Assembly: GCA_017506865.1 (NCBI GenBank)
Contig: JAFCMP010000033.1
Location: 62,001-126,000, forward strand
DNA length: 64,000 bases
Direction of reading: 5' to 3'
Source of the DNA: Tribonema minus
Lineage: Eukaryota; Sar; Xanthophyceae; Tribonematales; Tribonemataceae
A model generated the notes under the pieces. It was not told the origin of the DNA. It was given only the letters and a program-made list of their open reading frames with translations, and did no database searches. The first letter of the stretch is position 1; each line of letters starts with the position of its first letter. This document shows, piece after piece, positions 1 through 64,000 of the stretch. The position numbers and the translations under genes are program-made.

Positions 1-376
1 ACAGCGTTGACTTTGCTCGACCTGCGCTACTGCCGAGCGCTCAGCAGCCTGCCGGCTTCATTCGGCAACCTGACAGCGTTGACTTCACTCGACTTGTTCG
101 CGTGCGAGTCACTCGGCAGCCTCCCCGAGTCCTTCGGCAACTTTGACAGCGTTGACCTCACTCGACTTGGAGGGGTGCGAGTCACTCGAGAGGCTGCCCG
201 AGTCCTTCGGCAACCTGACAGCGTTGACTTCGCTCGACCTGAGCACTTGCCGTGCGCTCAGCAGCCTGCCGGCTTCATTCGGCAACCTGACAGCGTTGGA
301 GGTGCTATGGATGCACAGTTCCTCAGCGGAGGTACCACGGAATCTACTCGACTGCGGCCTCGCAGTGCTCAAGTAG
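1..376 (+). pseudogene. Leucine-rich-repeat protein, 3' end, frameshifted
   Basis: The stretch encodes about five LRR units of roughly 24 residues, each built on a core like NLTALTSLDL followed by CxSLxxLPxSFG, the plant- and alga-type Leu-rich pattern. The first units read in the frame starting at position 7 and the later units in the frame covering 143-376. The break falls near 132-145, where one unit has one base more than its neighbours (aactttgac against aacctgac), so a one-base insertion explains the shift. The frame ends at a TAG at 374-376 after a short non-repeat C-terminus (EVLWMHSSSAEVPRNLLDCG). The 5' part lies outside the window. Such repeats normally form a protein-binding solenoid; the partner is unknown. 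It may be a pseudogene, or a live gene with a sequencing error. Confidence 0.7.
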
Positions 377-1686
377 GTGTCGCCATGCCAAATGGATTGT
401 CATTGTTGCAACACTTTGTTGAACCCGAATTAGGGTGACGTGCCCTCTCTCTTCACTTTGTTTGGGTTTTCATATGGTTACTCCTTCCTGTGCACTGATG
501 TACGCGCATTGAGCTTTGTGTTGCAGTACAGCGACTTTGACAGAGCATGTAACGTGACATATGCATTCTAATTTGATCACTGCAATTCTCCATTGCCCGA
601 CTTCATTCATCTTTTTGACGCATTTCTGTTTTTGAACATGAAGCTTTGTGTTGCAATTTGTGCTCGTGTCTGCAGTGGTTGTGAGTTATTTCTGTGTGCG
701 CATTCTGCGCTCTTCGCGATGAATTGTTCTTGAGTCCATCCACGAGAAAGGTGAAACTCATGCATTTCTTCAAATTTGGCACGGCTCCAGCCCCTTGCAC
801 CTGTGCCATCTGATCTGCTGGTGATGACGGAATTGAATTCCTTACACACCAAGCACACGTTTGTTACAACGTAGCCCACTGTGACGTCCATGCGCTCCAA
901 CGACATTTTCCAGTCTCCATTCAGAATCAAGGGAATGGAGCTATATACGCACACCATGTCATTGAAACATTCTCACTGCTGTGCGCAAACGTCGCCTCCA
1001 TGTCGCGGCGCCTTGAAATTTGCGCTCTCGCTTCGCCATTCCAACCTCTGTCGCACTGCGGCTATTGCTTTTTCTGAGCATGTGCTTCTTGAGACGTCGC
1101 CATCATTGCGTACTCTGCTCGCTGTGTTCTGCTTTGTTGCGCTCACTCACCTTGCAAAGCAGCAACAGTGCAGTGCACACATCGCCAAAGCAATAGGCAG
1201 CATCATCGGAAGCATCAGGAGCAGGGAATCAGCAGCAGGCATTAGCAGATATACTGAAGTATCTGATTCAGCAGCAGGCAGCACTCATCAGTGTGTATGA
1301 ATGGCATCAGCAGCAGGCAGCATCAGCAGCAGGCATCAGCAGCAGACGGCATGCAGCAACAGGCAGGCAGCATGCACCAATTGGCAGGCATTAGCAGCAT
1401 TCACAGCAGCAGCACGCATCAGCAGGCATCAACAGCAGCAGCCAGCAACAAAAGCAGCAGCGTAGACAATTGAAGTTGTGAAAACCAATGCATTCAGTGA
1501 GTCAATGGCCATGCTAAGGGGGGCCGGGGTGTCTCACATCATTGCTATTGCACAACATGCGCAGTCGCAAGCATTTGGTGCACCCATGTCAGCTGGGGGT
1601 CTTGGCGGGGGGGGCTAGGGGAGGCACGCAAGCATTGCGAAATGCGCACCGTGGGCGTGCTCGTCTGTGAAAGTAAGCCATTGTGT
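377..1686. other. Intergenic region with CAG/GCA-rich low-complexity stretch
   Basis: Between the LRR stop and the stop of the minus-strand 1638-aa gene (convergent genes) I see no supported coding sequence. Positions about 1170-1465 are rich in cag/gcagcaggcat units, an imperfect trinucleotide-like repeat that gives long but meaningless Gln/Ser/Ala reading frames. Confidence 0.6.
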
Positions 1687-4600
1687 CTAGATTGGCGGAT
1701 TGCCGGGAGGGGGTATGTGTGCAGGCGCAGATATCTGGCTCTGTGCGGCAGTTTGAGAGTAGTGATAGTATCCTGGAGGGCTGTGCTGCATGTGCAGAGG
1801 AACCTGGGCAGCTGGCAGCATTTGAGGCTGGGCATTGTGGTGGAGGTCGTGCGCATGTGCAGCTGGCAGAGGGCGGTTGCCATGGCCAAGAGCGTTGTGC
1901 GCAAGCAGACCAGGCTGCTGCATGTACATGTGGTACCAACGCAGGAACACGGCTTGCTGAGCCTGCTGCTGTCGCTGGGCCTGCTGCTGCTGCTGAGCCA
2001 AGTATTCACGGTGTGCAGCAACGCTCTGCTGCAGTGTGTTGCTGCGCACCTCCGACAGTTGCTGCATTGTGCTGGTGTGCACTGCTTGAAACTGCTGCAA
2101 AGACAGTGCGTGTGTCGCCTGCATCTGCTGCATGGTGGTCGTGTGTGTGTTCTGCATTTTGGCGATTGCGCCCTGCAAGCTAGCTGCGTGCACATGCTGC
2201 ATGTTGGCGATTGCGGCAGCAGCCATTTCGGCGATGGCTTGTGCACCCCCTCCGCAACTGGCCCCGCCCCCCCCAGAACCACCGTCACTCCCGGCTGAGG
2301 ACATGGGGCGCAGTGCAGGGGGTGGACGTGGTGCATCAACGACACCATGGTGCTCACCATCCTCTGTGAACTGGGAGCGCTTCCCGCGGTTCTGCACGCG
2401 GCTGGTCAGCGAAGCCTTGAACTGTCTGTAGGCGCTTTTCCCGGCTGAGACACTGCTGTGCAACTCCTTCATGCCTGTAAGCACGACAGACACAAATTGC
2501 AAATGGATAAAAATCAGATCTAGCTCAGGAATTTGCTGCATACTGAGTGCTTTCAGATAGGATAACATCAGATAGGATGAACGACAGACACATGCAAACA
2601 TAACACCATTAGAACTAGGTATGGTCACAGACCAGCATGCGTACGACTGCAGGGTAATTGCTGCATTATAAGTGCATGCAGGTATGAAGAACGAACAAAC
2701 GACACATGCAAACATAACAACATCAGATCTAGCCACTATCACAGTCCAGCACGATTCCAACCGTCAGCTTCAGGCAAGCACCGAGTTTGGATGTTGCCAT
2801 GACAGACTTGCGCGCACAACATCACCTAGCATGAGTGAAGCTGTTGACTTGACATGCAAGTTGTCTGACTCACTTGATGCGATGAAGTCCTGCTGCTCCC
2901 CATAGGGCATCTTCATCGCCTTCGCAAAGATTTCCGTCACGGCAGTGGATCTGTTGCTGTAGGACGCGTAGTAGGGGATGCCCAGGTTGCTGCGGCCGAT
3001 CTCGTTGAGGACCTTCTCCCGAAAAGTGTGTTGGCTCACTTGATAGTTGGCACCGCCGCTGAGGCCGACTAAGCGGTCGGGTACTGGGGTTCCGAAGTGA
3101 ATGGCGCGCATTGTCCGGCACAGAAAGAGGACCGTCAGCATAGGCCTGTTGAGCTCCGATGGGACTGGCACACATGTCTTCATCGGCTCCGTGTCGTCAC
3201 CGCCACCGCTCATAGCGATCTTGCCCAGTTCAGCGTTCGCAATGTCCTGACATGAGAACGCAGCAAGCATAGTAAGCGTTGGTTGATGTCGTCAACTCAC
3301 AGCAGGGTATTACAAGCTATGTTGCATCACTATTGTTGACACACATTACACATCATCAAGTCAAGCTAGAGTGTGCGCACATGACTGGTCATACACATAC
3401 CTGAAATAAGATGAAACGACACACATTACACATCATATCTAGGCGTGCTTAGAAATGACCACATTACACATCATATCCAGGCGTGCTTAGAAATGACACA
3501 CGTTACACATATCAATACATGCTTAGAGTGTGCGTGCATGCCTGGTGATATGCATACCTGAAACAAGATGAAGGAAACACGGCCATCTGGGCCCGTTGTC
3601 ATCTTGGCCCAGACTTGAGAGGCAAGATTGCTCATTAAAGCCTCGGGCCTGACAGGGAGCAGGTAGTAGGCGTACAGGTGGACGAGAACCTCGAGGTTGG
3701 CGACGTCGTACGTGGTGAACTGCTCCGCCCCCAGCATGTGGTGTGCAAGTGTTGTGACCCAATCGACCTCCAGATGCGCGCAGTCACCCTCCGTTTGGGC
3801 CATGTTGAAGCCGTCGGCGGGACGACGGTGCGCCAGAAGCTCGATGAGACCGTCAAAGTTTGCCATCTGACGGCCCTGCGCCTCCAGCCCGCGTTGAATG
3901 GCTCTCTCGAACGGCTTCCAGGTGCTCTTGATGAACCCTTCCAGCATGTCATGAATGAGGTACATGAGGTGCTCCGGAAGCATGCGGCCTTGCTTCACCT
4001 TGTGCTCGTGTGTCTGGCTGTGTGCCTGCCACTTCTTCAGCTGTAAGCGGATATAGCACTGGAAGGGGGCCTGTCAAAGCAGCAGGAAAAGGTGACACAT
4101 GTATCCTCCACAAATTACAAATGAGAGCAATGCATGTTTTTTAGAGTTACAGTGGACATTGCTGGACACACAACAAACACACTGAAACTGTGGCGCCTAC
4201 TGGGGTGAACATGCGCAGTGTAGTTAGTGTAGATGTGCAGTGTAGGTTAGTGTAGATGTGCAGTGTAGGTTAGTGTAGATGTGCAGTGTAGGTTAGTGTA
4301 GACGTGCAGTGTACATACACGTGCACTGATGGTGCAGTACAATGGTGAAGATGTGCAGCGTAGGGAAGTGTAGACGTGCAGTGCAGAGTAGTTTATACGT
4401 GCAGTGCAGGGTGTTACCATGAATGGCGAGTACTCATGTAGGGACAGCTTGAACCTGCAGCAGACTGATCTGACCTACACTTTTGATCTAGAGCCATGTT
4501 ACTGGGCAGTTTATGGAACTTCAAGTGCACACAAAAGTTCAAGTCTGAGCCCTGAGGCCGGGAATGGCAACTGCTCATGTAGGGACAGCTTGAGCCTCTC

Positions 4601-7600
4601 TTAGCCTGACCTCACCTACACTTTCGATGAGGGACCATATTTATTTGCAGTTTACGAAAATCTAGCGAGCGTCGTACCGACCCAATTTAGGGTCAGCCTC
4701 TGAGAAATACTTTTTTCGACAGGCCCAGGATCAGGAACTTCAAGTTTCAGCATAAGTTCAAGTTTGTGTCATAAGGCTTGGAATGGCAAGTACTCATGTA
4801 GGGACAGCTTGAACCTGCAGCAGACTGATCTGACCTACACTTTTGATCTTGAGCCATGAACACTGGGCAACTTGTGAAACTTCAAGTACACTCAAAAGTT
4901 CAAGTTTGTGTCATAAGGCCGGGAATGGCGAGTACTCATGTAGGGACAGCTTGAACCTCTCTTAGCCTGACATCACCTACACTTTCGATCTAGTGCAGGT
5001 GAGCATTGAACTTGTATTGACAATGACGAACGTAAGATGCAAAGGATATAGGTCCAGCATACGACTTTGCTATGTCTGTACACGTCAAGGCAATGATGGT
5101 GCCGGCTGTTTGCCATCCAAGTCAACTGAACAGCTACACATCCCATCCAGCAAAAGCAACATCGCCAGTGACATGCCTTCAGTAACTGAGCATGTCAATG
5201 AAGTGCAACTCACCTGATTCCGACGTAGGCTCTCGGTGCATCGACTCAAGTCGATCGAGTTTTGCAAGGTGCTCCTGATGGTGCGCAGGCAGAACTGGGC
5301 GTCGCTCATCAAGTTGCAGTACGCCGATTGCGAACGAGCAGCCTCCCCAGAGTTGGTGTCCGCCGAGAGGAACCACATCTCCATCCTCGCCATCGGGGTG
5401 CTGTTGACGACGCACACAGGTGGGCGATCGGCTCCGCGCTTGCTGCAGACGAGTGCTTCGAGGGCACGTGGTAGCGACGGGTGGGAAGGGGGGACGAGTG
5501 TCTCCAGGACGCCGAAAGGCTTGCGATCGTCAGCGACCGTTGTTGCGTGGATGCGAGTTTCCGCCAACTCCAGCTCCTCCTGAGTCAGCATGACAGCACC
5601 TGAAGCGCAGGTGGGGAGACGGCCGAGGACTGCTGCGGTGGACAGGATCTTGATGACGGAGTTGACTGGGGTGACGTTGGCGGCGGTCTTACGGGGGAGC
5701 GTCTCCAGCTCCAGTGTGTCCACAGTCTGCTGGGTGAGGCCAGGCCAGCAGATTGCCATGTACGAGCTGCTGGTGTCTAGGTGGGTGTACCTATGCTGTT
5801 TGGGTGGCAAGAGACGGTCGCAAGTGACTGCGTCCGCAATGGCGCGTACGATGCCATGCGTCCGCTTGCCGTTGGAGTGAAGGTGTGGCTGATTGGGGCG
5901 CAGGTACTTGCCGTTTCTAACCCACTCGTTGGCATCAATGCGCGACCCAGACACTCTCTTGACCTTGGCATCCGTGAGGTAGACATGCATGACCAGCATA
6001 CCCTCAAACACCAGGCATGCGCGCTGCAGCAAATATGTCCCCCATGCCTCGCAGAGTGGCATGATGCCCTGCGCCGGCTCCGCGCGCTTCAGTACGTCAG
6101 ACAGGCTGAGTAGTTCAGTCCTGGTTGGCGCCCTGCGCGGATAGCAGCGCAACATGTTGAAAAGTGAAGTTAGAATGTGCCAGCTGAGACAGCCATACTT
6201 CCTGCAGATTACAGGTGCACAATGGCGAAAGATGTCACTTACTGACGGACAATACAAGACTCAGGTGAAGAGAACATGAACATACAATGCGGACCTCACC
6301 TGACATACTGTCTCCCCTTGCTGCCCTTCTTGCTGGCGCGCTTCCTGCGAGGGGGGGCATCAGCGCTTGTGCCCTGCTGCTGCCTGCCTGATGTCTCCGC
6401 AGGCTGAGAGTCTGGGGCAGCAGTGCTACTGGTCATACAAAAATGCACACAGAGAAGAACAAAAAGCATAGTGAGCGTACGATTGCGTGCAGTAGTCATT
6501 TGTATTTGACTGTCTGTGATCCTGTGCACGGCAACATACAGGCAATGCGCAGCGACCGAAGGTGTACTATCTCACCTGACATTGGCCGCCATGCCATCAC
6601 CATTTCGCTCGCTGTCGGCAGTGGGTACCGTGGCAGGAATGGGCTCACTGTTGACAGCAGAGATTGACACACAGGATATGACAAGAGTGTGATAAGGTAA
6701 TGACAACGTGTGTGGGCAACACGTGACATCAGTCAATGATCAACTGTGTGTGGCCTCTTCTCATGCTGGGGATGCTTGAACCTCTCCTACACTGATCTCG
6801 TCCCGACAGGTCCAGCCTCAGCAACTTCAAGTGTATACAATAGTTCAAGTGTGTGGTGTGGGGCTGAGTGTGGTGACTGCTAATGTAGGGAACACGTGGA
6901 CCTCTCTTAGCCTGACGCCACCAGCACTTTCGATCCTGAGCCACAACTGTTTACGCTTTATGAACCCCTTCAGCATAAGTTCACCTTTGTGTTATGAGGC
7001 TTATGGTGAGCACTCATGGAAGGGCAGGGTGAACACGGCGACTGCTCATGTAGGGATGGATTGAACCTCTCTCAGCCTGACCTAACCCACACTTTCGATC
7101 ATGAGCCACAATTGTTTACACTCTATGAACCCTTTTCTCGACAGGCCTACTTCAATTGCAACACAGGTTCAACTTTGTGCTCTATGCCCTAGTATGGCCT
7201 CTGCTAATGCTGGGGATGCTGGAACCTCTCTTACACTGATCTCACCTACACTTCTGATCAGCAGCCCTATTTATTTGCAGGTTACGAAAATCTAGCGAGC
7301 GTCGTACCACGCCCATTTAGGGTCAGCCTCTGAGAAATACTTTTTTTCGACAGCCCCAGCCTCAGAAACTTCAAGTGTGTGCCAAAGTTCAACTTTGTGC
7401 TCTAAGGCTTAGTATGGCCTCTGCTCATGTAGGGATAGATTGAACCTCTCTTAGCCTGACCTCCCCCTCACTTTCGATCATGAGCCACAATTATTTACAC
7501 TCTATGAACCCTTTTCTCGACAGGCCTACTTCAATTTCAACACAAGTTCAACTTTGTGCTCTATGCCCTAGTATGGCCGCTGCTAATGCTGGGGATGCTG

Positions 7601-10600
7601 GAACCTCTCTTACACTGATCTCACCTACACTTCTGACCAGCAGCCCTATTTATTTGCAGGTTACGAAAATCTAGCGAGCGTCGTATCAACCCCATTTAGG
7701 GTCAGCCTCTGAGAAATACTTTTTTTCGACAGGCCCAGCCTCAGAAACTTCAGGTGTGTGCCAAAGTTCAACTTTGTGCTCTAAGGCTTAGTATGGCCTC
7801 TGCTCATGTAGAAATAGATTGAACCTCTCTTAGCCTGACCTCCCCCTCACTTTCGATCATGAGCCACAATTACTTACACTCTATGAACCCTTTTCTCGAC
7901 AGGCCTACTTCAATTGCAACACAGGTTCAACTTTGTGCTCTATGCCCTAGTATGGCCTCTGCTAATGCTGGGGATGCTGGAACCTCTCTTACACTGATCT
8001 CACCTACACTTCTGATCAGCAGCCCTATTTATTTGCAGGTTACGAAAATCTAGCGAGCGTCGTACCACGCCCATTTAGGGTCAGCCTCTGAGAAATACCT
8101 TTTTTCGACAGCCCCCAGCCTCAGGAACTTTAAGTGTGTGCCAAAGTTCAAGTGTGTGCCGTAAGGCTGGCTGCTCATGTAGGGATAGATTGAACCTCTC
8201 TCAGCCTGATCCAACCCACGCTTTCGACCATGAGCCACAATTGTTTACACTTTATGAAACCTTTTCTCGACAGGCCTACTTCAATTTCAACACAAGTTCA
8301 ACTTTGTGCTCTAAGCCCTAGTATGGCCTCTGCTAATGCTGGGGATGCTGGAACCTGTCTTACACTGATCTCACCTACACTTCTGATCAGCAGCCCTATT
8401 CATTGGCAGGTTACGATAATCTAGCGAGCGTCGTACCAACCCCATTTAGGGTCAGCCTCTGAGGAATACTTTATTTTGACAGGCCCAGCCTCAGGAACTT
8501 TAAGTGTGTGCCAAAGTTCAAGTGTGTGCTTTAAGGCTGAGTATGGTGACTGCTGATGTAGGGATTAATTGAACCTCTCTTAGCCTGACCTCACCAACAC
8601 TTTCGATCCTGAGCCACAATTATTTACACTTTATGAACGCTCTTCAAGTGCCAGCAGCATAAGGTCCAATGAAACAGTTCTTACCTCTGTATCAAGAACC
8701 AGCTGTCTACGCCGGGTGCCCTGGTGCCGAAAACTGTGACGCCTCGCGTTTCTTCCCTGTATGAGTTGATGCTGAGCTTAAGAGGGCCGTCAACTCCGAC
8801 GTCGTCCTGGATGGTGTTGTTGGTGCGCACACGGTCGCGTTGCAGCGTGAGCATGATGAGCCGATGACTGTCCACAGCCTCGAATGACGTGATCGAACCT
8901 CGCACCCAGCACCTCCGCCCGTCCACGTCCATGACCACCCAGACTCGCAGCCGCGATGTGTCTCCGGTCAGGTCTACCTTCTTTGCCTCGTCCTTACTCA
9001 AGGGCCGAAACGCTATGGCGGCTGGTGCTGGTGCTGGGGCGCGTGCTGCTGCTGGTGCCGGTGCTGCTGGTGCTGGTGCTGCGGGGGCGCGTGCTGCTGC
9101 TGGTGCTGGTGCTGCTGGTGCTGGTGGTGCTGGTGCTGCTGGGGCGCGTGCTGCTGCTGCTGCTGGGGCGCGTGCTGCTGCTGCTGCTGGGGCGCGTGCT
9201 GCTGCTGCTGCTGGGGCGCGTGCTGCTGCTGGAGAAGGAGCCGATGCAGTCACCTCTTGCGCAGATGCTGAAGTGGTACGTTGAGAGGTGGGCTCCGGTG
9301 ACAAGCCATAGCCGACCTCGAAGTGCATGCCACGTACGCCGGTAACGATGCCTCCACCGCGCACCCTCGTCCTACCCAGGCGAATGCCGTAAGCAGATGG
9401 GTCAGCGAAGCGCGCTGAGTTGAAGAGGGACTCGTCCACGCGTTCGGAGGGCTCCGCTGTGCAGTAAAGGACACGGTCTCCGCTGGTGCGCAGTAGCACG
9501 GTGTTGTGCTTTTGGCTCCTAGTCCAGGACACCTGCAGGTACACAAAGCATGCAAGAGTATGGTGAGGTCGAGAGTCTCAGAGATGCTAACAATGCTGAA
9601 TAGTCACTCGACGCTTTGACCTGCATGTACTCTGCACCTCTTTCACCAGATGCAAACAATGCTGAATAGTCACACTGCAAGTATCCGTCACCAACCTCGT
9701 TCACCAGCAGCTTCTCAAGGGATAGGAATGTCTGCTGGTTGTCGCGTGACTTGTTCCTCTGCTCCTGCACCTCCACCTTGTGTTTGTCGGACTTCTGGAT
9801 GAGGACGGCCGGGTCGCCATTGACCAGACTGGTCTGACGGGCGAGCACAGCACCGCCAACCAGCTTGTGAGCTGCTCGATTGCAGCCCGAGATGCAGAAG
9901 GCCGTGATGCGCGCAAACGCCTGCAACCATGGAGAAGCGGAGTAGGTTAGTCAGCAGACAGGCATATGCAGAGTCAAAAGATGCTGACAAAGGGATAGAC
10001 CGTACTCACATTTCGGGCCGCACTCGCCGCTCTTGCTGCTATTGCTGGTGCGCCTCCTGCCGCAGTGGTTGACGTGGGTATCGCATGGCTGTTTGAGTCC
10101 TCCACATCACTGTCGTCGGCGTCGCTGTCCTCGGCGTCGCTGTTGTCAGCATCACTGGCATCCACATCGCTGTCCGCGTCGTCCATCTGCGCAGAAAAGT
10201 GGACCAGAGAGCAATATGGTGAGCATTGCACAAACGTTACTGGACAGCAGCAATGCCTCTGAAGAATTGCCATTTTGCCACTTACCATCTGCAGGTCCTC
10301 GGCAAGGGCTTGCTGTATCTGTGTCTCCATGTGCTGATAGTCAGCCGCAGTGACAGGCAGCGGGTGCTGTTTGCGACGTTCCTCCGCATTCATTTGCTCC
10401 GCGTGCAGGGCGGTGGCAGTGGCGTCCTCCTGCACGCAGCAGAACATGACTCAGTACATGTGCTGCTGCAGTAGAATTGATGTGATAGTAGCAAACCTAG
10501 CAAACCTGCCAGTGCCAGCACAACGGTAACGGTCGAAACACCAACAACAATATGATACTCACATCATCTGAGCCCGATGAGTCTGTTGCTGCCGCTATGA

Positions 10601-28709: not shown

Positions 28710-31700
28710 ATGCGCGCCACAGGGGCAGCGGTGGTGCTGGCAGTGCTCGCATCGACTTCGGATGGCTTCGTGGTGCCTGCAGTAGGCCGCGCTCACCGAT
28801 TCAGGTACGGGCTCTCCTCTTCATGCTCTCGCCACGCACCCCTCTCGCTACGTGATTACGCACTTCGAATCGCCGCAGAGCTGTACTGAGCGGTGGCGGA
28901 GCTGTAGAGCGCAAAGCGCATAGGTCTTTGCCGAAACGTAGGCGCCGCCCACCAGGCTTGTCAGCCCCCCCCAGTGCTGTCGTCGGTTGCATTGGTGCTC
29001 TGGGTGCACCCTCCCGAGTCTGAAATATGAAAATCAATCGAGAGTTGCGTAGCAGCGTTGGCTTGAGCTGGTGGCCTTGATTGGTTGCGCTGCCATGTTG
29101 AGAGTGGCCACTGATTTCTTTGATAGTGAAGGAATGTGCTCGCACGCTTTACGCACTGCTCGCATCCTTCGCCTTCTGGATCATCGTGTCGGCGGGCGGT
29201 GATTCAATGATTCAAATGATCATTGCTCTGTGGCACTTGCATACTCTGTCAGAGGACAGGCCAGACCAATGTATTTCTAGCAACTGATGCAGTTCAGCAT
29301 ATTGCTATGATTGCAGCACATGATAAAAGTGCCCATCGCACACCATATCGTATATACAGCGCAGCGCCACGGACTTGTGTCAAACCCATCTGCACACGTT
29401 TTCCTGTGAACAGGCCACTGGTGCGGCCATTGCCAGCCTGGGGACCCACGGAACAACGGCAAAAACCCGTGCTCAAGTTCACTGCCAGCCGTTCTGCCAC
29501 CAGGCAGAGACGGGGGAGCGATTCTCCCCCTACCCTGGATCTCACTGTAGTGGACCCATATACGGGGGCGAGCTATGTGCACTTTAGGCAGGCGCCGGAG
29601 CTGCTGACAAAGGAGGAGGAGGTGTCGCTGGCGCGGCTGGTGCAGCGGAGAATACAGTGGGAGGCAGTGCGCAACAGATTGGTGAGTGGCGATGGCAGCA
29701 ATGGCATTTTCTTGACAGTGCGGCGCTTTGAGGCATTCAGGTCGTGTGCAGAACACAAAGTTAACGTGCACAGCCAGTGTGCTCTTTGCATCAAAAATCG
29801 GCAGCTTGTGCTGAGTTCACTCTGGAGCAGCGAGCATGCTGAGCCAATCCTCATTCGCATGGCAGAAAGAAATGTGGTTGCTTTGGACTGTGTGTCAGGC
29901 CACTCAAACGGTGCGGGGGTGGAGACCACAGCACAACATAGCATGCTACTGCGTTGAAGCTTTCAATGCAATACCACGTGTACAGTCATGCATGCTGGAT
30001 GTCAAGTATCAGCGTGGTCAAGTGCCTTATGCACAGATCACCAAGTTCAAGTTCAAGTGCCCGCATCCAGCAATAAGCAGTTGCACAAGTACCTGTGCTG
30101 GATCATGGTAGCCTTTTGACAAAGTCACGACTCTTGACGATGATGAGACTTCATACAGCTCTGGCACGGCCCCACAGACCTACAGCATCGTGCTACAAGC
30201 CCGATCAATGGAGTTTCAGATTTGTACAGTAGTGACGGAGCGGATGTGACTGGATGTCGCACGTATGTGCCTTCATGGCCGCCTCTGCCGGTGCTTCAAC
30301 GCAGGACATCAGCATGTTGGCCCGCGCTCATTGCTAAGTCCAGCGGTGTGTACTACGCTTGATTGGAGGCCTGTGGAATCTTCTTTCCGTTGCAGCAAGA
30401 CTAGTGACGAGCACACCTGAATTGTGAGGTAGTATACGGAGGTCTTGCGCTCAACAATACAAACCGTTGATGACCTTCAACTCTATGTTGATGCATTTGT
30501 TCAACAGAGCAGTGCTCGTCACATCACGTGCAGACTGTGCCGCCAGCATGACTCCGCGTTGACGTCTTCACGAGCCCTACATGACACGCACGCGCACTCT
30601 ATGCACCACGCTTCCGCTCTAGGCACACACATCCCACAATCAGGTCAACGCAGGCGCTTTTTTCACCTTCGTAACACGCTATCACCCTTTCTCCCACGCC
30701 GCGCCTGACCCTCAAACAGGCCTCTGAATTTGGCAAGGAGCCCACCCTCTCCGAGTGGGCCGTGGCAGTGGGCTTCAGAGGGGGGTACCCCCTGGACGAG
30801 GAGTTCTCGCAGCAGGTGGCGGAGGGGGACTCTGCGAAGGCAGCGATGATCAGCGCGAACTTGCGGCTCGTGCTGAGCCTCGCGCGCAAGCACAAGGCGT
30901 CGCAGGGGTCGCGGTGCCTGCCGCTGTCAGACCTCGTGCAGGAGGGGATCCTGGGGCTGGTGAGCCGCGTGTGCTGTTTGCAGTGTATAACCAAGTTGAA
31001 GTTGCTGTTTGAAGTTGTATGGTACATTGAAGTTGTTGCGGCGAGCTGACTGCAAGGCACGTGCCAGGGCTCCAAGTGCCTGCCGCTGTCCAGGAGGGGA
31101 TATGTGGCTGGTGAGCCATATATGAAAGGGATTGTGTTGTTGATGTGGATGTTTGCCGGCAGTAGAAGTTGAAGTTGACTCTGCAGATTCGAGCAGTAGA
31201 ATTGACATATTGCGCTGCTGTTGTGTTGCTGCGCTGGGAGGAAGGCATGCCAGGCTTGTAGTGCGCGCCGCTACGGGACATCGAGTGACCGTGGTCGAAG
31301 TGTCGAGCCCCATTTGTTGCTCATGTGTCTGCAACTCTATCACATCCTCTACTTGAAGGATGACTTCATCAAGACGTGTCATGTTGGTCTGGTGCTGAAC
31401 AGCTGCTGAAGTTGAAGCGTTGTGGCGCGTACAGCTGTTGAAGTTGGGCTTTGAAGTAGCAGCGACACGGTGAAGCAAAAGCATGTACATCGCTGTGCAT
31501 ATGAGGCTTGTGTCTCAGCTGGTTTCTACAACAGTGCTCACGGCCGCAGCACGCTGAGCGTTCCAGTCAAGAACATTGCATACGCACGCCGCCTTTGCGA
31601 TTGCCGCTGGGCAACTGCCACTGAGCTGCAACGAGTGGTGAAGCACTGCCCCAGTACACAAACGGATACTGTAGCAAAGAGGTTCTCGTACAAGAGCGTC

Positions 31701-34700: not shown

Positions 34701-37121
34701 TTATAGATGTGCTTTCATGAGTCAAGATGCCTTGACGTGGTCTGAGTAAGCAATCTGCAGGTTACGTTGAATTTGTGCCGACGTCTCATTGTCAAAGCGG
34801 GAGCGCACACCGCCTTACCAAGCGCAACCCTAACCCTAATTTCAAACTATATGTCCAAACCCATACCTACTGCATGCAATCTCAGTTTTCTGTTGTGGTC
34901 ATCAACGTTGCACGTTGAGAAGCTGCGGTGGCCTCACAATATCATCTATGCTGCTGTTGTACAAAATGTGTATGCGGCAGGTGGAGAAGTTGCGATGGCT
35001 GCATTCGTGCAAGTACTCGGAGCCAATCAGCCTCAGCCTACAACCGGGAAACGGCAGCGGCCTGCGACCAGACAAACAATCCCTTACGGTGAGTGACCAA
35101 CCCTAACCTAACCAGCAGCGCTCTGTGAGTGACCCTAACCCTAAGTAGCAGCGCTCGATTACTAACCCTAACTCTGAGCAGCATCGTTAAAAAACCAAGT
35201 CTTCTACATGGTGAGTCAACCCCACACTGTGGTGCAGCGCTGGGAAGGTTGCACTGCTCGGCAGGGAAGGATCAGTGATCGGATTCTGCGCATGCAGCAG
35301 GTGCACTGCGCATGATCATCAGGCACATACATACTGTAGCTGAGCAGCGCTTGGATACAGCAACTGTGCTGCGTCTGCGTCGACTATGGTGCTTTGAAAC
35401 GTCCCTCCTTGGTGGTTGAGGTGTCATTGCCTCATGTCCGTGCTGCTCGGACTACTGTGCCAGCTCGCAATGCAATGCGCACACATTTACAGTGCTCAGC
35501 AGTTGTCTGCTCGCGCTGACCGCTGCGCAGTATACACGATCGTAATTGACTTGCCCTTGATGATGTAGCATGCGGCCACGCTCGGCCATGTAGCATTGCT
35601 CAGCAGTTGTCTCCGTGCGCCGGGCGCTGTGCAGTTCACATGCTCGTGCTTGGCTTGTGATGGCACGCGCTTAATAACAAATGAAAAACGAATCAGAAAG
35701 ATCAACAAATGTTAGCATGCCATGTGGCAGTGCTCACAAGTTCTGCTCGCGCTGATCGCTGCGCAGTCTACATGATCGTCACTGACTTGCGCGTAATATG
35801 GCAGTTCTCAGCAGTTGTCTCCGCGCGCTGGACGTCATATAGTATACATGTTCGTAATTGACTACATGATCGTAACTGCGAACCTAGCATGCGGCCACGC
35901 TCAAAGCCATGTGGCAGTGCTCAGCAGTTGTCTTGTTACGCCGGTCGCTGCGCAGTCCACGGTGGGCGACAGCGTGCACGACACCAACCCCACGCCGGAA
36001 GAGTACCACAACACCATGGCCATCAGGGAGGACGTTGACAACCTGCTGAGCATGTGAGTCATATATGATATGATGCTGATGTATTTTCAAGCAGCATGTA
36101 GAATGTGAAGTTGAAGTAGCACATGGTAGTGATCAGAGGAGTGTCACAGAACCATGGCTATTTGGGAGCGTTGTTGATTCCCTGCTTAGCTGTGAGTCAA
36201 ATTGGTGCACTTGAAGGAAGTACACAGTAGTGGCCAAGCCTAACATTCAGTACAGCTGTTGTGGTTGCCACAGGCAACAGCGGCAGCGAGTGATCAAGCC
36301 TGATTTTGTGGATGCCGGTGGTGCTTTTACGCCGCGATGCAATGCACTTTGCCTGGCATTGGCAAGAATGATTCGTCTCATTTTGCGGAGAATATGCATG
36401 ACATCTTCGGCTGGATAACGGTATCACCGGCTTCTATGCACTTGAGAAAGCCCGCAGTAAAGCTTCAAGTGAATAGGGCACGCTCACCCTATAGTCCCCA
36501 CAAGATGTGAGGCGATGGTCAATGCTGTTTCGTGACGGTGTGCGGATTTTGAGTTAAGTCACCCAATAGTATCCCCCCACCCCAATCACCAGTTGCCAAC
36601 ACCTATGAGGAAGCTTACAGAATGAAACACGCTGGACCAGTTTGACAAGCGCTTTGAGGGCTGTATCAGCAGCTTCAATCGCTTTTGCCTTCTCGTGCGA
36701 ATATGCTTTCATGTTGCTAGATGCACAGTGCAGCTTCAAAAGCCCTATGCATGGAGGCTACGTCTAGCCCCCCCCCCCCTCACCCCTCATCTCTTCCCAG
36801 ATGCCCTGTGATCTTGCATTGGAGTTCTCCCACACATTCCTGAAGTCCATGTCAGCACCCCTAACGCCCCCCCCCCCCCCCCCCACCCCCCTACAACTCA
36901 TCCATTGCTGCAGACTCACGCCGCGCGAGCAGACCGTCCTGCGCATGCGCTACGGCCTCGATTCGGGCGGCATCAGCGAGACGCTAGAGGCCATCGGCGT
37001 GAGCATCGGCGTCACGCGCGAGCGCGTGCGCCAGATTGAGCGCCGCGCGCTCGACCGGCTGCGCATGCTCGGCGCGTGCGGCGACGCCACGGCGGAGGCC
37101 GCGCGCGAGCACGTAAAATGA
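28710..37121 (+). CDS. Plastid RNA polymerase sigma factor (sigma-70 family), 8 exons
   Basis: Exons: 28710-28804, 29360-29681, 30720-30959, 31927-32061, 33445-33543, 34981-35088, 35956-36053, 36914-37121; about 434 aa, all phases consistent. Exon 1 encodes a signal peptide ending TSDGF, the plastid presequence motif. Exon 2 carries region 1.2 ([17 protein letters not shown]). Exon 3 has regions 2.1-2.2 ([23 protein letters not shown]). Exon 4 has regions 2.3-2.4 ([19 protein letters not shown]), which melts and reads the -10 box, and [10 protein letters not shown]. Exons 5-6 are region 3. Exons 7-8 are region 4 ([15 protein letters not shown], then the helix-turn-helix [18 protein letters not shown]) that reads the -35 box. 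The protein directs the plastid-encoded RNA polymerase to promoters. The exon 2 acceptor could be at 29414 instead (18 residues shorter). Exon 1 membership is inferred from phase and context. Confidence 0.88.
31050..31118 (+). repeat. Copy of sigma exon 3 end plus donor
   Basis: The real exon end reads gcggtgcctgccgctgtcag through gaggggatcctggggctg, then gtgagcc (30911-30966). About 150 bp downstream the intron repeats aagtgcctgccgctgtcc, aggaggggat, gtggctggtgagcc, with a short internal deletion. The GT donor is intact in the copy. Confidence 0.8.
32700..33445 (+). repeat. Array of ~12 copies of the sigma exon 5 acceptor
   Basis: Units of about 60 bp end in ttctctcgacaggactcgct or variants, followed by gtcatca, a stretch ending tgacacattctcac and cgcttgtg. 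The last copy is the real one: tcctctctacag|GACTCGCTG at 33445. Upstream copies share both the pyrimidine tract with AG and the first 8-9 bases of the exon, for example near 32760, 32865, 33075, 33130, 33240, 33305 and 33365. Some have lost the AG (acatgactcac near 33010). The array fills the 3' half of intron 4. Confidence 0.9.
33520..33735 (+). repeat. Triplicated sigma exon 5 donor
   Basis: The border gggtctcacg|gtgagcagcgctcagcac (33534-) recurs as gggagtcacggtgagcagcg at about 33620 and again at about 33706, 86-90 bp apart. Each is followed by the same intron start (cagcattgctcagta, tccacactctgcttacat). The third copy is more diverged. Confidence 0.9.
34800..35200 (+). repeat. Sigma exon 6 border copies with telomere-like CCCTAA motifs
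   Basis: Upstream, gttgagaagctgcggtggcc (34914-34933) is a degenerate copy of the exon 6 start gtggagaagttgcgatggct (34981), 66 bp apart. Downstream of the donor at 35088, gtgagtgacc plus ccctaacc plus agcagcgctc is repeated about three times to 35185. The ccctaaccctaa tracts (also at 34821) match the TTAGGG-type telomere repeat but lie inside an intron. Confidence 0.75.
35485..35956 (+). repeat. Array of copies of the sigma exon 7 acceptor
   Basis: The real acceptor region reads gtgctcagcagttgtcttg, cgctgcgcag|TCCAC (exon from 35956). Related copies occur at about 35490-35535, 35586-35640, 35722-35775 and 35800-35850, each with ctcagcagttgtct and most with cgctgcgcag or gctgtgcag followed by T-xx-AC. 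Confidence 0.85.
36140..36200 (+). repeat. Copy of sigma exon 7 end plus donor
   Basis: Exon 7 ends with accatggccatcagggag, gttgacaacctgctgagcat|gtgagtc. About 135 bp downstream the intron reads accatggctatttgggag, gttgattccctgcttagctgtgagtc. The GT donor is retained. Confidence 0.8.
36764..36895. repeat. Poly-C tracts in sigma intron 7
   Basis: Two long C runs (about 36769-36778 and 36867-36893) lie just before the final-exon acceptor at 36914 and form its pyrimidine tract. Confidence 0.8.
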
Positions 37122-52407: not shown

Positions 52408-52442
<35 letters not shown>

Positions 52443-56900: not shown

Positions 56901-58028
56901 CAGAAAGAATACTTCAAGAAGAAGACTTGATGCGGCCCTGGCTTCCCCAGAATGTATTTGTCATTGCTACAAACTGTCGTTGGTCCGAAATGCACATGTG
57001 AGTGCCGAGTTTGAGCAAAGCTGTGACATAAGCCTGTGCATGTACACCTAATCGTGCTTCAGGAAGTATCTACTAGCGATAGTAAGTCTGTTGTACTTCG
57101 ACCTATCAACATGTGCACGCAGAGTGCATGATCCATTGCAAGTGTCTCATACACAAGCTGGACAGGACATGACGGTCAGGAAGGCGATGCGGGCCTGCTG
57201 GCAAGTTGTTGACCTGCATAGCTGATTACACAGGCTCACATCTTGTCAGGGCTGTGACAGTTGAGCTGCAGAGTACATGCACTTCGCCTGCTTGTTGATC
57301 ATCTTGGCAACCCATATCAGCTGTTAGCTCCTTGTTGGGTGTGGCTGCAGTAAGGCCTGCGCAAGGCGACTCCCCCCCCCCCTCCCCCCACCCACCCCGG
57401 TCCTCTCCTTCTTCTGCATCCACCATGATATTTGCTGTGGAGTGGGCGGCCTGGTGCTGTGGGGCACAGAAGAATACAGTATGACATAGGGCTACAAAGG
57501 TCAATGGCTGAAGAGGAATGATTGTCGGCAGCTGTGCCGTTACGCGGCAACCTGTGTTGTGCAGTGCAGTCAGTGGATTTCCGCCCTAATCCACACCAGC
57601 AGCGTATAGGTGTCATGGCTGCGTGTGCACAACTGCTATGTAAAGGGTCATGGAGTGTTGCCACACACACAAAAAAACTATCGCCATGCAGTCACTGCAG
57701 CATTCTTACCAGCTCCGGAAGCATTCACACTACACTGTGTGATTTACAGCAAGCGAATGTGGCAGCCACATGATGCCCCTTGTGTATGGGCAAAAAGGCG
57801 GAAATAACAATGCAACAGGAGCCAGCAAAGTGTTGTTGCTTGCCAGCTCTGACCAACCACACAGCCACGGCAACAATATGCTTGGAGGGTACAAGGGGCC
57901 CCAGATGCATCAAGGGGGGCATTGAGATTCAGCGCGAGAGGGACTGTTCAGTGAATGACATGATTGATGGCACAGGAATGATCCGCAGCGTATGTAGGGT
58001 ATATCAGTGCAACTCACCTGAATTCGTC
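53961..58028. other. 4-kb stretch, upstream exons of the 53763 gene not found
   Basis: The upstream part of the minus-strand gene should be here, but no exon could be supported. A poly-C/poly-G-rich tract lies at 57372-57395. Just below the ankyrin-like stop, at 58019-58011 on the minus strand, AATTCAG|GTGAGTTG has the form of a donor, which may mark a 3'-UTR intron. Confidence 0.4.
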
Positions 58029-59072: not shown

Positions 59073-60280
59073 AGCCCGGCTTTGCGTCAGCTTCCTCAGG
59101 TCACCACATCAACTTCAAGTCTCCAGAGGAGTTGAAGATTTCGAACTGGAACACCTGGGGCAACGTTTCCCCACACCCTGGCTGCAGACGCCATTGGTCA
59201 TCAAGGATTCTGCAACCTTGCAACGCTGCAGGGCCATGATCCTAGTACTGCCATGGTGCACACTCTGATGGCTGCAGTTACCATACGTATCACAGCATGT
59301 CTGAATTGCCGCGATGGTCAAAGTCTGACTTGGTGGCCCATCCACCCTTTTTCCACTGATCTCAGACGGTGCTGATGTGGTGCTTCAGCACCTACTGATA
59401 TCATGTGTTCATGCGGAAGCTGACTTGAGAGCGACCAGACCTGCTCCGATTTGTGCAACTGAGACTTCAAAGGTTCCGAGTTGAAGTTGGGTTGCGAAAC
59501 AGTACTATCATATATGAACTAATACTTAGAAGAATACTAAGAATGCCAAGCGCACATGAATGAGCGCTGGCTCATGAACTCTTTGGCCCATCAGCATATA
59601 TTCAATGATGCAAGTCACAGCCCACTATGATACTATGACTTGAGTACAAAGTCGAGAAATTGGTGGAGTTGTCAACACTTGCCCCCTCGTGACCGTCAGT
59701 TCACATCAAAAATCATGCATTGCTACCCACAGCGCCTTTAAAGAATTCCTTGCATGCATGGTCGTGATGCACTTCAATCCGAGCCTCAGGGAAAATGACG
59801 AGTTTGCTTGCACTTCTTCATGCATGGTCATCTTGACAAGAATGCACTCCCGGGCCATACGCATGAAACAGTCGAGAAATCAAAGTTGCAACACTTGACA
59901 GTGCTGCAAAGTCAAACAGCAATACCATCTTTATCATTTGGAGAAGACCATCACACGAATCCATTTACAGCGCTGCCCCAAAGAAGTGCGGCAGCCACAC
60001 TGGCATCGAAACCCAAGTACAGCTGTGTACTAGCAGACCCAAGGAGCCATCCGCTCGGCTAGGTACAATGCCCACTTGTTGGCAAACTGGTTGACGCAGG
60101 GTCTGACGAGCATCAGCACCGCTGACTCCGCAGCCTGCTGCACCACAGCCTGCATCACAGCTGCCCTAGCAACTTGAACGCACGTGCTCTGCTGAACACA
60201 AGGCCAGCTGCTCGCTGACACCCTGTCTGCGCGTGAACAAGCGACCATGGCGCCAAAGCGTACTGACTGTACTGTACCGC
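59073..60280. other. Intergenic, no feature seen
   Basis: Between the ankyrin-like gene start and the Rpt3 stop. Two similar phrases (gacttcaaag, ttgaagttg) occur, but no gene or repeat array is supported. The ankyrin-like promoter presumably lies next to 59073. Confidence 0.45.
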
Positions 60281-63200
60281 TCAGGAGGAGTAGAAGGCCA
60301 GCTCCTTGTCAGCCTTGTTGACGTTGTTCTTGTAGGCCTTGTCGAGATCCTTGCCCAGCACGACGTAGCGGTTCTGCCGCACCGCCTGCAGCCCTGCCTC
60401 CTGGCAGATGGCCGAGATGTCCGCTGCGGAGATCTTCTCGGGGCGGTTCACGTAGTCTTCTAGGTCCACCTGCGCAGACGCGGCAGCGGCAGCGGGAGGA
60501 GAAGCTTAGCGATGGCAGCCTCTCAGCAACAGCTTTTAGACGGGCACATAAGCGAGCGGCAGGTGTGGGTGAATCAACCATACATGGACAGACGTTGTAC
60601 CCGCTGAAAAACTATAATTCTGCGGCAGAGGGTCCACGCTCTGTTCGAGCATTCATGCAACCAGCAGCGGCAGCGCAGCACCAGCGCACGCTTGTTGGTT
60701 GAATACTTCAAAAGTATTTGGGCACACATCAGAGCATACACTTCCCAAAAACAGTCTCAAGATGCGGGATCGCTGCAGAGATGTTCTTGTATTGAGTGGA
60801 AGCCCTGCAACTGGTGCGCAGATTCTCGCACCTCGCCTACCAAAGGTATCTGGCGTGTAGAGCGCAGCATCGGCACTGCAACTATCAAAGGCAGCGCAAC
60901 CAGCACACTTTAGTGGAAGGAGCTGGCTGCTACATACGCTGTGCAGCATTGCCACGGAATAGCAAGTGACTCAGAAATGAAGTAGCACTTTGATGATTTT
61001 AAAATATTGTAGTATTCGGAAGGTCAACACAAATGAAGTGCATTGCCTCACCTCTTCCGACAAGTTCATCTTGCTGACGCACGCAGTGAACACGAGGCGC
61101 TTCTGCCGCCGATCCGGGTTGGGGAACTCAATCTTGCGGTCCAGTCGGCCAGGCCGCAGCAGAGCGGGATCGAGTGTGTCGGCTCGGTTTGTGGCCATGA
61201 TCACCTGAGGGCAATGGGATGGAACACCGAGGTGTTTCAGTGTTGAGACGTTGACAAGCGCACGTGAATTTGCAAAGTAGTGGAGCAGAGTAAAGCTCTC
61301 GGACACGAGCTTACCCATTGTGAAAGCACAGGCCAATCAAACACATGGGTGCGATGTACTTAGTCCATGATCATGGATTACAAGCATAAAACACGGCAAG
61401 CCTGGCGGCGGGCAGTGCCGGGCACGAACATTGAGGTTGGTGGTACAATTAAGCCGTCCACCTGCTTCAGCTGCGTATGCATTATTGGTCATCAACCAAA
61501 ACTGAAGTGACAGATTCGCAGCGGTTCACAAATGAGCAGATTGTCGGTGCAAATTAGCCTCAGCAGTTGTGAAACCATATGGAGGAACGGCGAGCATGCA
61601 AGTGTTGCGCATGCACGACCTTTGACGGTGCTGGTCTGATCAAGTCGCTTGTCTGTTTCAGCAGCTCCAGGAGGATGCGCTGCACACTAACAACTGCAAA
61701 AAAACATACCCATGCTGTACTGCTCATCACAGTCCTGATGAAGAGTGTCACACCGCAGCAGTGTAAGACGGCATTGAATTAAGCCACAGCTAACAGCCAT
61801 TGCAGGCGCAGGCAAACCGTGACTTTGGTGGTCTGGTCAAAGCCATCCATCTGGCTGAGCAGCTCGAGCAAAATGCGCTGCACCTGTCTGCCTGCATACC
61901 GATGCTGAACTCTCGTGCTACATGCACGCAAATCATCACCGCTGAACCAGCACTACACCTACCGCATACAGACGAACCTCAACCTCAACTTGACGTTGGT
62001 GGTCTGGTCAAAATCATCCATCTGGTTCAGCAGCGCGAGCATGATGCGCTGCACCCATCTACGAGCTCTGGACTAGCACTGACCCTGCTGCGTACGGCCG
62101 AATCTCAACTTTACCTTGACGTTGGTGGTCTGGTCAAAGCCATCCATCTGGTTGAGCAGCTCGAGCAGGATGCGCTGCACCTCGCGGTCCGCGCCCGTCT
62201 GCGCGTCGAAGCGCTTGGTCGCGATGGCGTCGATCTCGTCGATGAAGATGACCGAGGGGCTGTTCTCGCGCGCGAGGCGGAACACGTCGCGCACCATGCG
62301 CGGCCCTTCGCCTAGGTACTTCTGCACAAACTCGGAGCCCACGACCTGCAGAAGCGAGGGAAGTGCAGGGGGTGTGAGCAGGCGCCGTGAGTGCAACAAA
62401 TGGCGCCTTGAGGGTGTGTTGATGATGAGAGTGGCGGCAAGTGCACTGCAGTGCGTTGTGGCGCGCTGCTTGCTGCGTCAAGAGATCAGCGTATCATCTG
62501 TATGAACTGTGAGCGCGCGACGTGGGTCATGTGGGCGCAATGAGTGAGTGAAGGTCGTGCGTAGATGACTCTCAGTTGCCACAGTGAGTGCTTCAAGTTG
62601 ACAGAAAAGGACACTGGCGTGTCCCCACGGCGGAGCACTGATATCCCCCCCCCCCCCACACACACACACACACCACTCCTACTTCAACCCTGCCTACAAA
62701 TGCACAAAGCTGCGCACGGCCCTCAGATCCTCTTCAGGAGTATTTGCTATTCACCAACATGAAAGACGCATTTGTCGCATTCGCCACAACCTGGTCATCA
62801 TTTTTATCAAAAATGCTGCCATGCCATGCGGCCCATACAGGAGGATATCGTGCGGCAGAGCGCTGCAGAATCCCCCCATCTCGTACACGCCAACGACAGC
62901 ACATGCGCACGCCTCTGCACGCCTCAACATTGTCAAATGAGAAAATGCTCACCGATATGAATGACGCAGTTGTCGCGTTGGCCACGGCTTTCGCCATCAT
63001 GGTCTTCCCCGTGCCGGGCGGCCCGTACAGGAGGACCCCGCGCGTCGGGTCGATAATAAAATACGCACGCGCCACACTGTCCTACATGTGAAGAACCATC
63101 ATGCATCTCGAACAGAAGGACCAAGACAGCACTCACCGAAATGAACGACGCAGTTGTCGCGTTCGCCACGGCTTTCGCCATCATGGTCTTGCCGGTGCCA

Positions 63201-63646
63201 GGCGGCCCGTACAGGAGGACCCCGCGCGGCGGGTCGATGCCGATCTGCCGGTACAGCTCAAAGTGCGTGAGCGGCAGCTCGACCGCCTCCTTGACCTCCT
63301 GCTTCTGCATGTCCATGCCGCCGATGTCCGTGTACGCGACGTCGGGCTTCTCCTGCATGAGCTGTATCGTGGAGTCGCTCTCGGGCGGCAGGATCTCGAC
63401 GACGCTGTGGCTGTGCCGGTGCAGCGCGACGCTCGTGTTGGGCTTAAGCTTCTCGCGGTCTAGCGTGCTCAGGATGCGCACAAAGTAGTTGGAGCCCGCG
63501 GTGGAGCCGACGATGCCGTAATTGGCGTCGATCATCTCGTTGAACTGGCCGATGACGAGCGGGACGGACTGGATGCGCTTGATCTCCTCCTTGGCGCGGA
63601 TGAGCTCGCGCTTCAGGTTCTTCATCTCGTCCTTGATGTACTCCTC
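60281..63646 (-). CDS. RPT3: 26S proteasome regulatory ATPase Rpt3 (PSMC4), N-terminus off window
   Basis: Exons: 63646-63137, 62345-62115, 61204-61052, 60469-60281 (stop), all phase 0. The protein starts inside the coiled coil ([11 protein letters not shown]), then the OB domain ([26 protein letters not shown]) and the AAA+ ATPase: Walker A GPPGTGKT (exon 1), Walker [10 protein letters not shown] and [12 protein letters not shown] (exon 2), then [22 protein letters not shown] with the Arg fingers (exon 3), and the C-terminal helical domain (exon 4). It is very close to Rpt3 of animals and plants. Rpt3 is one of six ATPases of the 19S base that unfold substrates and open the 20S gate. The C-terminus ends FYSS, where other Rpt3 proteins end with the gate-opening HbYX motif (Phe-Tyr-Lys), so it is one residue longer. 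The first ~60 residues lie beyond 63647. Confidence 0.93.
61625..62170 (-). repeat. Three decaying copies of the Rpt3 exon 2 end and donor
   Basis: The true exon 2 end encodes [20 protein letters not shown] then GTAAAG (62115). Downstream on the minus strand, copies encode [16 protein letters not shown] (about 62040-61990), [18 protein letters not shown] (about 61880-61820) and [14 protein letters not shown] (about 61685-61640), each more changed and spaced 125-190 bp apart. All lie in the 910-bp intron 2. Confidence 0.9.
62640..62680. repeat. Poly-C then CA repeat
   Basis: A C run of about 13 followed by a short ca repeat (cacacacacacacaca), within Rpt3 intron 1. Confidence 0.8.
62755..63090 (-). 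repeat. Two copies of the Rpt3 Walker A exon end
   Basis: Copy 1 (63081-62953): an acceptor (cacatgtag), 43 codons and a donor (TCG|GTGAGC), symmetric phase 0. It contains [19 protein letters not shown] and [11 protein letters not shown], so the P-loop is intact. Copy 2 (about 62855-62755) is degenerate: GPPGTGKT has become GPHGMAAF and the frame is broken, though ANATNASFM remains in another frame. Spacing from the real exon is about 182 bp and again about 180 bp. Both lie in the 791-bp intron 1 of Rpt3. Confidence 0.92.
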
Positions 63647-64000
63647 CTGAGGGGGCAGCGAGCGAGCGGGGGGGGGGAACAGCAGTGGGTATCAAGAAAT
63701 GTTGAGGCATTAAAGCAGGATATACAAAGGTGCAAGTGGTTGAGGGCACCCTGTCGTCGCGATTGCGTCAATGTCCCTATTGTTGGTCAGGAGGTTCATG
63801 ACAATCAAGATGACGCCGCGCAAAGCCTACATGAAACGCTTTTTCGCAGATGCAGATGAGCTTGGCCTTCAACTTCCTTGTGTAACGATTTGGTTGAAAC
63901 GTCATATGCTGGAGCAGGCACTTCACAAGTCAACCTGGTGCATGTTGCATGAGAGGCAACGTGGAATGTCACCTGCAGGACACAAAGGAGTCACTTCCCA
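63647..64000. other. Rpt3 intron, upstream exon outside window
   Basis: A C/G-rich acceptor tract (minus: ccccccccgctcgctcgct) borders the first visible Rpt3 exon. No upstream Rpt3 exon is recognisable before the window edge. Confidence 0.5.

What the first reader, a model, noticed from the sequence alone, without database searches (positions are those of the whole stretch)
1..64000. Introns in unrelated genes are enlarged by tandem copies of their own splice junctions
In four genes of independent function (1638-aa protein, sigma factor, ZCCHC10-like, Rpt3), introns carry tandem, decaying copies that span an exon-intron border. Copies of acceptors keep the pyrimidine tract, the AG and the first 8-10 exon bases. 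Copies of donors keep the last exon bases and the GT. The copies are not of one transposon, because each matches its own gene. Tandem duplication of AGGT-containing exon segments is a known route of intron gain; repeated junction duplication as a general mode of intron growth in one genome would be new to me.
Basis: partly seen in the sequence, partly recalled or inferred. Interest (0 to 1): 0.9.

Follow-up and report, generated by a model that had tools for sequence, protein, structure and literature searches.

The report
Introns grown from duplicated splice junctions

Summary
The window is nuclear DNA of the alga Tribonema minus. The pattern recurs in sampled genes: 20 of 66 introns of at least 200 bp, in 11 of 20 gene regions, hold a copy of a flanking exon end; shuffled introns gave 1/660, foreign introns 0/660, exon interiors 0/57.

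Copies drift like neutral sequence beside a constrained exon. In paralogues of one window gene the same intron is 136-162 bp without repeats, or 311, 367 and 580 bp with arrays. Best reading: tandem duplications, mostly of 40-240 bp, that overlap a splice junction survive because the outermost donor or acceptor still gives the right mRNA, so introns grow.

Yet arrays touch or cross a junction more often than uniform placement predicts (29/33 v about 15; 12/12 clusters in seven other loci). That anchoring is unexplained and is the novel part. One annotated paralogue reads a copy as an extra exon. No RNA data were available.

The parts
62345..63136 (-). Rpt3 intron 1 with two copies of the upstream exon end plus donor (exon-derived parts about 63054-62953 and 62861-62755)
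   Evidence: exons fixed by P0001
61205..62114 (-). Rpt3 intron 2 with three measured copies of the upstream exon end (about 62055-61989, 61885-61818, 61686-61621); donor GT kept in one of three
30893..31117 (+). sigma-factor intron 3, array crossing the donor (67 bp of exon)
32644..33453 (+). sigma-factor intron 4, acceptor array: 8 copies of tract + acceptor + about 9 exon bases, then the real acceptor at 33444/33445
33532..34074 (+). sigma-factor intron 5, donor-side array: TRF period 86 bp over 33532-33726 includes 12 bp of exon end; the self-BLAST array begins 11 bp (E < 1e-3) or 195 bp (E < 1e-4) inside the intron
35484..35960 (+). sigma-factor intron 6, array reaching the acceptor
35998..36202 (+). 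sigma-factor intron 7, duplication crossing the donor (56 bp of exon)
3337..3580 (-). P0126 intron 5 (3557-3247): duplication crossing the donor; no repeats detected in six of eight fetched paralogues (five of 136-162 bp, one of 346 bp), a different array in the other two
6748..8646 (-). P0126 intron 1, array with about 379-bp period starting 39 bp inside the donor (counted as not touching a junction)
4421..4996 (-). P0126 intron 4, array inside the intron, away from both junctions (a counter-example)

Best explanation
T. minus introns grow by short tandem duplication (units mostly 40-240 bp). A duplication whose unit overlaps an exon-intron border copies the exon end plus the donor, or the acceptor plus the exon start, into the intron. 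It is tolerated because the mRNA stays right as long as the outermost donor or outermost acceptor is used, so the inner copies become intron. Further duplications make arrays of spare splice sites, which then drift without visible selection; now and then a copy may be taken up as a new exon. Duplications inside coding sequence are removed by selection, so arrays fade out within about 140 bp of exon. SHOWN: the copies and their tandem order, drift of copies, introns with and without arrays in paralogues, and outer sites in the annotated proteins P0001, P0121 and P0126. INFERRED: that splicing mostly ignores the inner copies (probably by exon definition, since a copied edge lacks the exon's other edge), and that slippage or microhomology-mediated repair makes the duplications.
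For: 83 of 90 exon-end copies run up to the junction. Step between copies: median 149 bp, 5 of 83 above 240. Exon v copy differences by codon position .085/.070/.168, the pattern of a freely drifting copy beside a constrained parent (81 copies). GT kept in 39/50 donor copies, AG in 28/33 acceptor copies; about 85% would be expected (my estimate) from about 8% change per base, so there is no clear selection for or against spare sites. Repeat coverage is zero beyond about 140 bp into exons (26 introns); exon interiors 0/57. Intron-derived parts of copies are recognisably alike in 120 of 162 comparisons. Paralogues: 136-162 bp without repeats v 311, 367, 580 bp with arrays. Outer sites in the annotated models: Rpt3 P0001, sigma P0121, P0126. 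All 13 inner sites tested in these three genes would shift the frame or add a stop.
Against: Uniform duplication plus selection predicts many more arrays inside introns than seen (29/33 touch a junction v 14.3-15.7 expected). A complete tandem unit is not always visible: in 28 of 41 junctions the alignable exon plus intron part of the nearest copy falls short of the step by more than 20 bp; it fits within 20 bp in 10. Exon-derived parts of copies are more alike than intron-derived parts even copy v copy (.829 v .650), which simple independent decay does not fully predict. The annotated protein P0127 (C112) reads 72 nt of an acceptor copy as an extra exon, repeating 24 residues, so not every model uses outer sites only. 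No RNA-seq shows which sites are spliced. The P0126 family may not be typical.
Confidence: 0.72

Rival explanations
1. Junction-targeted mutation: exon edges are duplication hotspots in this genome (through transcription, splicing, chromatin edges or shared splice-motif microhomology), so arrays start at junctions rather than merely surviving there.
For: 29/33 arrays touch or cross a junction v 14.3-15.7 expected, P < 5e-5; 23/26 by my count when exon-derived copies are masked for detection; 12/12 near-exon clusters in seven other loci; 13 of 14 genes have at least half of their arrays in contact.
Against: Junction windows not significantly more repeated than interior windows (p = 0.12); coverage not peaked at junctions. 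Pre-growth intron length is estimated, and if introns were near 150 bp when arrays began (as in the P0126 family) geometry alone would force contact. Counter-examples: P0126 introns 1, 4, 6 and, at E < 1e-4, sigma intron 5.
Confidence: 0.3
2. Gene conversion from the constrained exon keeps copies of exon edges alike, so junction arrays stay visible while equally common interior arrays fade.
For: Exon-derived segments .829 v intron-derived .650 identity between copies. Intron divergence is similar to or lower than four-fold-site divergence in five of six P0126-family pairs, so introns are not clearly hypermutable.
Against: 26 arrays are still detected with exon-derived copies masked, and 23 of them touch a junction. 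Copies were chosen by exon similarity, which biases this comparison.
Confidence: 0.2
3. Introners or another mobile element carrying splice sites.
For: T. minus is an aquatic stramenopile alga (recalled); [quoted passage not shown]
Against: Junction 60-mers match only their own gene (0/660 v foreign introns); copies include exon bases and lie in tandem; no shared element was seen.
Confidence: 0.02
4. The copies are functional alternative exons or regulatory decoy sites.
For: Most copies keep GT or AG. One annotated model, P0127, includes part of an acceptor copy as an extra 24-residue exon.
Against: Retention fits neutral decay; the codon pattern shows no coding constraint in copies; 13/13 inner sites tested in three genes break the frame or add a stop. 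The P0127 exon is a gene prediction without RNA evidence seen here.
Confidence: 0.08

Closest known systems
[quoted passage not shown] ATP2A1, fission yeast and potato RdRp cases as summarised in PMC4974935; abstract and introduction read)
   Same: Tandem duplication in a gene reuses existing splice signals; in potato RdRp the unit crosses an intron-exon boundary.
   Different: There a new intron is created in single genes. Here an existing intron is lengthened, repeatedly, at many junctions.
Introners (PMC9860276; passages read)
   Same: Rapid change of intron content in algae.
   Different: Introners are dispersed elements that make new introns; these arrays are local and gene-specific.
Intronic minisatellites and tandem repeats (general knowledge)
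   Same: Tandem arrays expand and contract inside introns; C65 and C90 paralogues differ in copy number of a unit of about 71 bp.
   Different: Ordinary intronic repeats are not built from the splice junction and exon edge.
Large introns of Ectocarpus (PMC12477816; passages read)
   Same: Related lineage, similar intron length (autosomal median 524 bp in a passage; 532 bp in 57 introns here).
   Different: The passages shown to me discuss transposons in introns and do not mention junction arrays; I did not read the whole paper.

Membership tests
Tandem-duplication intron gain (Rogers model) | Duplicated segment with AGGT in coding sequence creates a new intron | tested here: not met
   P0126 intron 5 exists without repeats in five paralogues (136-162 bp) and is only lengthened in the window copy
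Tandem-duplication intron gain (Rogers model) | Local tandem duplication supplies duplicate splice signals | tested here: met
Introners | One element family dispersed across many genes | tested here: not met
   0/660 exon-end 60-mer comparisons with other genes' introns
Introners | Target-site duplication or terminal inverted repeats | not tested
   -
Intronic tandem repeats | Head-to-tail copies inside an intron, copy number variable | tested here: met
   (unit of about 71 bp: repeat span 22-304 in a 367-bp intron v 22-514 in a 580-bp intron)
Duplicated or alternative exons | Copies are whole exons under coding constraint and spliced | tested here: inconclusive
   copies are exon edges without visible coding constraint and 13/13 inner sites tested break the frame or add stops, but P0127 annotates part of one copy as an exon; splicing itself not testable here

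The most novel reading that the evidence does not exclude
In T. minus, exon-intron borders are preferred starting points of tandem duplication, so that intron size evolves by a junction-anchored ratchet: each event adds a spare splice site inside the intron, and splice-site choice (probably by exon definition) tolerates long arrays of near-perfect decoys, with an occasional copy turned into a new exon.
Probability: 0.35. Interest if true: 0.82.

Novelty: new variant of a known kind. Interest (0 to 1): 0.62.

Why it matters
Why introns lengthen is usually answered with transposons. Here is a genome in which a sizeable share of sampled introns grow from their own borders, with intermediate states visible and paralogues that show introns with and without the arrays. 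The arrays are also natural splicing experiments: eight near-identical acceptors in a row, after which the ninth is the annotated one. RNA-seq could show directly how splice sites are chosen among near-identical ones.

Tried and rejected
Considered and rejected: one transposon or Introner family (0/660 cross-gene matches); assembly artefact (copies differ from the parent exon by about 12% on average over 82 copies; paralogues carry distinct states); copies as generally coding exons (but see P0127); nucleosome-sized units (the 149-bp median comes partly from searching with 60-bp exon ends; the sigma, ZCCHC10-like and P0126 arrays have steps of 36-110, 47-49 and 38/71 bp).

Early results replaced: (12 of 27 introns) included one intron that started at a donor copy, two misplaced acceptors and Rpt3 borders off by one or two bases; these were mended, and one search replaces it. 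first counted 17 of 24 arrays crossing a junction (10.8 expected) and 7 as internal, before contact within 15 bp was counted. In one search, 4 of 70 introns shorter than 200 bp were left out. I first read as P0127 using only the outer acceptor; one search showed that the model also takes in part of the copy. For that I lowered the best explanation from 0.75 to 0.72 and raised the functional-exon rival from 0.05 to 0.08.

Literature: the listings showed no paper on junction arrays as a mode of intron growth (listings only, held library only; passages or sections read from three papers); the brown-algal comparative genome paper that I looked for by DOI is not held.

Full report
WHERE IT IS. Spliced exons of the window's Rpt3 gene match a Tribonema minus protein (P0001) at 100% over 298 aa. 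The window is G000:C33:62001-126000 of a 158-Mb assembly in 554 contigs. A second 100% hit, P0002, is a transcript-derived protein of an unnamed EukProt entry; the sigma factor found with a similar transcript name (P0122) is only 55% identical, so these transcripts may come from a relative and I do not use them as same-species RNA evidence.

THE OBSERVATION. Gene models came from annotated T. minus proteins: P0001 (Rpt3), P0121 (sigma factor, 8 exons) and P0126 (705 aa, - strand). Rpt3 introns 1 and 2 carry two and three measured copies of the upstream exon end. Sigma introns 3 and 7 and P0126 intron 5 have donor-crossing duplications.

BEYOND THE WINDOW. I searched the genome exon by exon with chaperonin CCT, HSP70, actin and kinesin profiles and fetched 10 CCT and 8 HSP70 gene regions. 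In the profile rows (E <= 0.001) I counted by eye seven partial exon copies beside their exon: four share the exon's start (C51 twice, C135, C538) and three its end (C5, C511, C246). I saw none that was purely internal; overlapping rows that I read as neighbouring exons, such as C279 24-87 and 57-103, were not counted. In 19 gene regions (CCT, HSP70, Rpt3), 90 copies of exon-end 60-mers were found, 83 of which reach the splice site, at 41 junctions. Splice sites in the CCT and HSP70 genes were predicted from profile ends and consensus scores, not from RNA.

CONTROLS. On 70 introns from 20 gene regions (66 of at least 200 bp), 60-mers were aligned to their own intron (score at least 18): donor exon end 15/66, acceptor exon start 7/65, donor junction 18/66, acceptor junction 14/66, intron centre 12/66, intron quarters 22/132, exon interior 0/57, dinucleotide-shuffled introns 1/660, other genes' introns 0/660. 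So the copies are far from chance and gene-specific, but junction windows (32/132) are not significantly more repeated than interior windows (34/198; p = 0.12). Repeat coverage by position says the same: about 0.3 at junctions, 0.2-0.4 further into introns, zero beyond about 140 bp into exons (26 introns). Introns with exon-end copies: 20 of 66, in 11 of 20 gene regions, median 885 bp v 497.5 bp for the rest (p = 9e-5). Genes differ strongly: all five introns of the CCT gene on C135 have arrays, while 25 of 31 HSP70 introns show no repeat at E < 1e-3.

HOW COPIES AGE. Differences between exon and copy by codon position are 117/1381, 97/1388 and 234/1396 over 81 copies: the copy drifts freely, while the exon changes mostly at third positions. 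GT survives in 39/50 and AG in 28/33 copies. These numbers give no clear sign that spare sites are selected for or against.

IS IT SIMPLE TANDEM DUPLICATION? In 10 of 41 junctions the alignable exon and intron parts of the nearest copy add up to the step within 20 bp, as a complete tandem unit should; in 28 they fall short by more than 20 bp, in 3 they exceed it. Intron-derived parts are nevertheless recognisably alike in 120 of 162 comparisons, often with shifts, so later indels are the likely reason; 42 comparisons show nothing.

WITH AND WITHOUT. P0126 belongs to a family with ten further loci. I fetched eight of the ten. Its intron 5 is 158, 143, 157, 136 and 162 bp without detected repeats in C166, C112a, C329, C112b and C301; 346 bp without detected repeats in C126; 311 bp in the window, where exon end and donor (-23 to +64) recur 156 bp downstream; 367 bp in C65 and 580 bp in C90, where a unit of about 71 bp starting 22 bp inside the intron is repeated, more often in C90. 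In C112a a copy of the acceptor and exon start lies about 600 bp upstream of the real exon. The annotated protein P0127 contains the first 24 residues of that exon twice: the model takes 72 nt of the copy as an extra exon and then the full exon from its outer acceptor. I saw no RNA evidence for that exon. If real, junction copies can also become new exons. In this family intron divergence (.064-.188) is similar to or lower than four-fold-site divergence (.137-.209) in five of six pairs.

WHY IT IS TOLERATED. The models P0001, P0121 and P0126 use outermost sites. Using an inner copy in Rpt3 introns 1 and 2, P0126 intron 5 or sigma intron 4 would shift the frame or add a stop in 13 of 13 cases. 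The simplest splicing rule that fits is exon definition; this is inference. The Ectocarpus paper's remark that introns there show mammal-like exonic splice enhancers (PMC12477816, passage) is compatible with it.

ARE JUNCTIONS SPECIAL? Of 33 arrays (E < 1e-4) in 14 genes, 29 cross or come within 15 bp of a junction; uniform placement predicts 14.3 (by seed) or 15.7 (by footprint), P < 5e-5. The gene bootstrap gives 0.70-1.00 for the contact fraction. The conserved exon side does not account for it: with exon-derived copies masked, 26 arrays remain detectable, and 23 of these are in contact by my count against the footprints. Seven 3-kb loci fetched at the start by similarity to Rpt3 served as a fresh sample: all 12 repeat clusters within 600 bp of an exon cross an exon edge; three more had no exon within 600 bp and cannot be judged; in two loci (L006, L008) the clusters are weak and sprawling. 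Counter-examples: P0126 introns 1, 4 and 6 and, at E < 1e-4, sigma intron 5. Caveat: if introns were about 150 bp when the arrays began, contact would follow from geometry.

UNEXPLAINED. Exon-derived parts of copies are more alike than neighbouring intron-derived parts, even copy v copy (.829 v .650; unrelated introns .518). A constrained parent accounts for some of this; gene conversion from the exon may account for the rest. Copies were picked by exon similarity, which biases the comparison.

VERDICT. Real, recurrent and interesting: a new variant of tandem duplication acting on genes, in which introns are lengthened rather than created. The junction preference is statistically supported in this sample, but its cause is open.

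Noticed in passing
L063 (C112:115200-117900), 1211-1282 and from 1813: The annotated protein P0127 repeats 24 residues because a copy of the exon start, about 600 bp upstream, is modelled as an extra 72-nt exon: a possible case of a junction copy becoming an exon.
   Followed up: partly
window 8932-2359 (-) and C65, C90, C166, C112 (3 places), C329, C98, C126, C301: P0126-like genes (no precomputed Pfam domain) form a family of at least 11 loci with 80-93% identical DNA and different intron lengths; could be a recent gene family or mobile; C98 and C329 score alike and may be haplotypes.
   Followed up: partly
window 58029-59108 (-): Long open frame with roughly eight 81-bp (27-aa) repeats, ankyrin-like by eye (name recalled): tandem duplication kept in frame inside an exon.
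   Followed up: no
   Followed up: no
window 34828-34839 and 35133-35144: Short CCCTAA repeats in the two introns flanking the sigma exon at 34984-35088.
   Followed up: no
C544:161000-170900 (L047) about 4331-5294 on the gene strand: Repeat array with about 150-bp spacing in a stretch of a CCT gene without an assigned exon; may mark an exon too weak for the profile.
   Followed up: no
HSP70 genes C548, C522 (two), C101: In these four HSP70 regions no repeat was detected at E < 1e-3 in any of 13 introns, unlike CCT and Rpt-like genes; expression level or gene age may matter.
   Followed up: no
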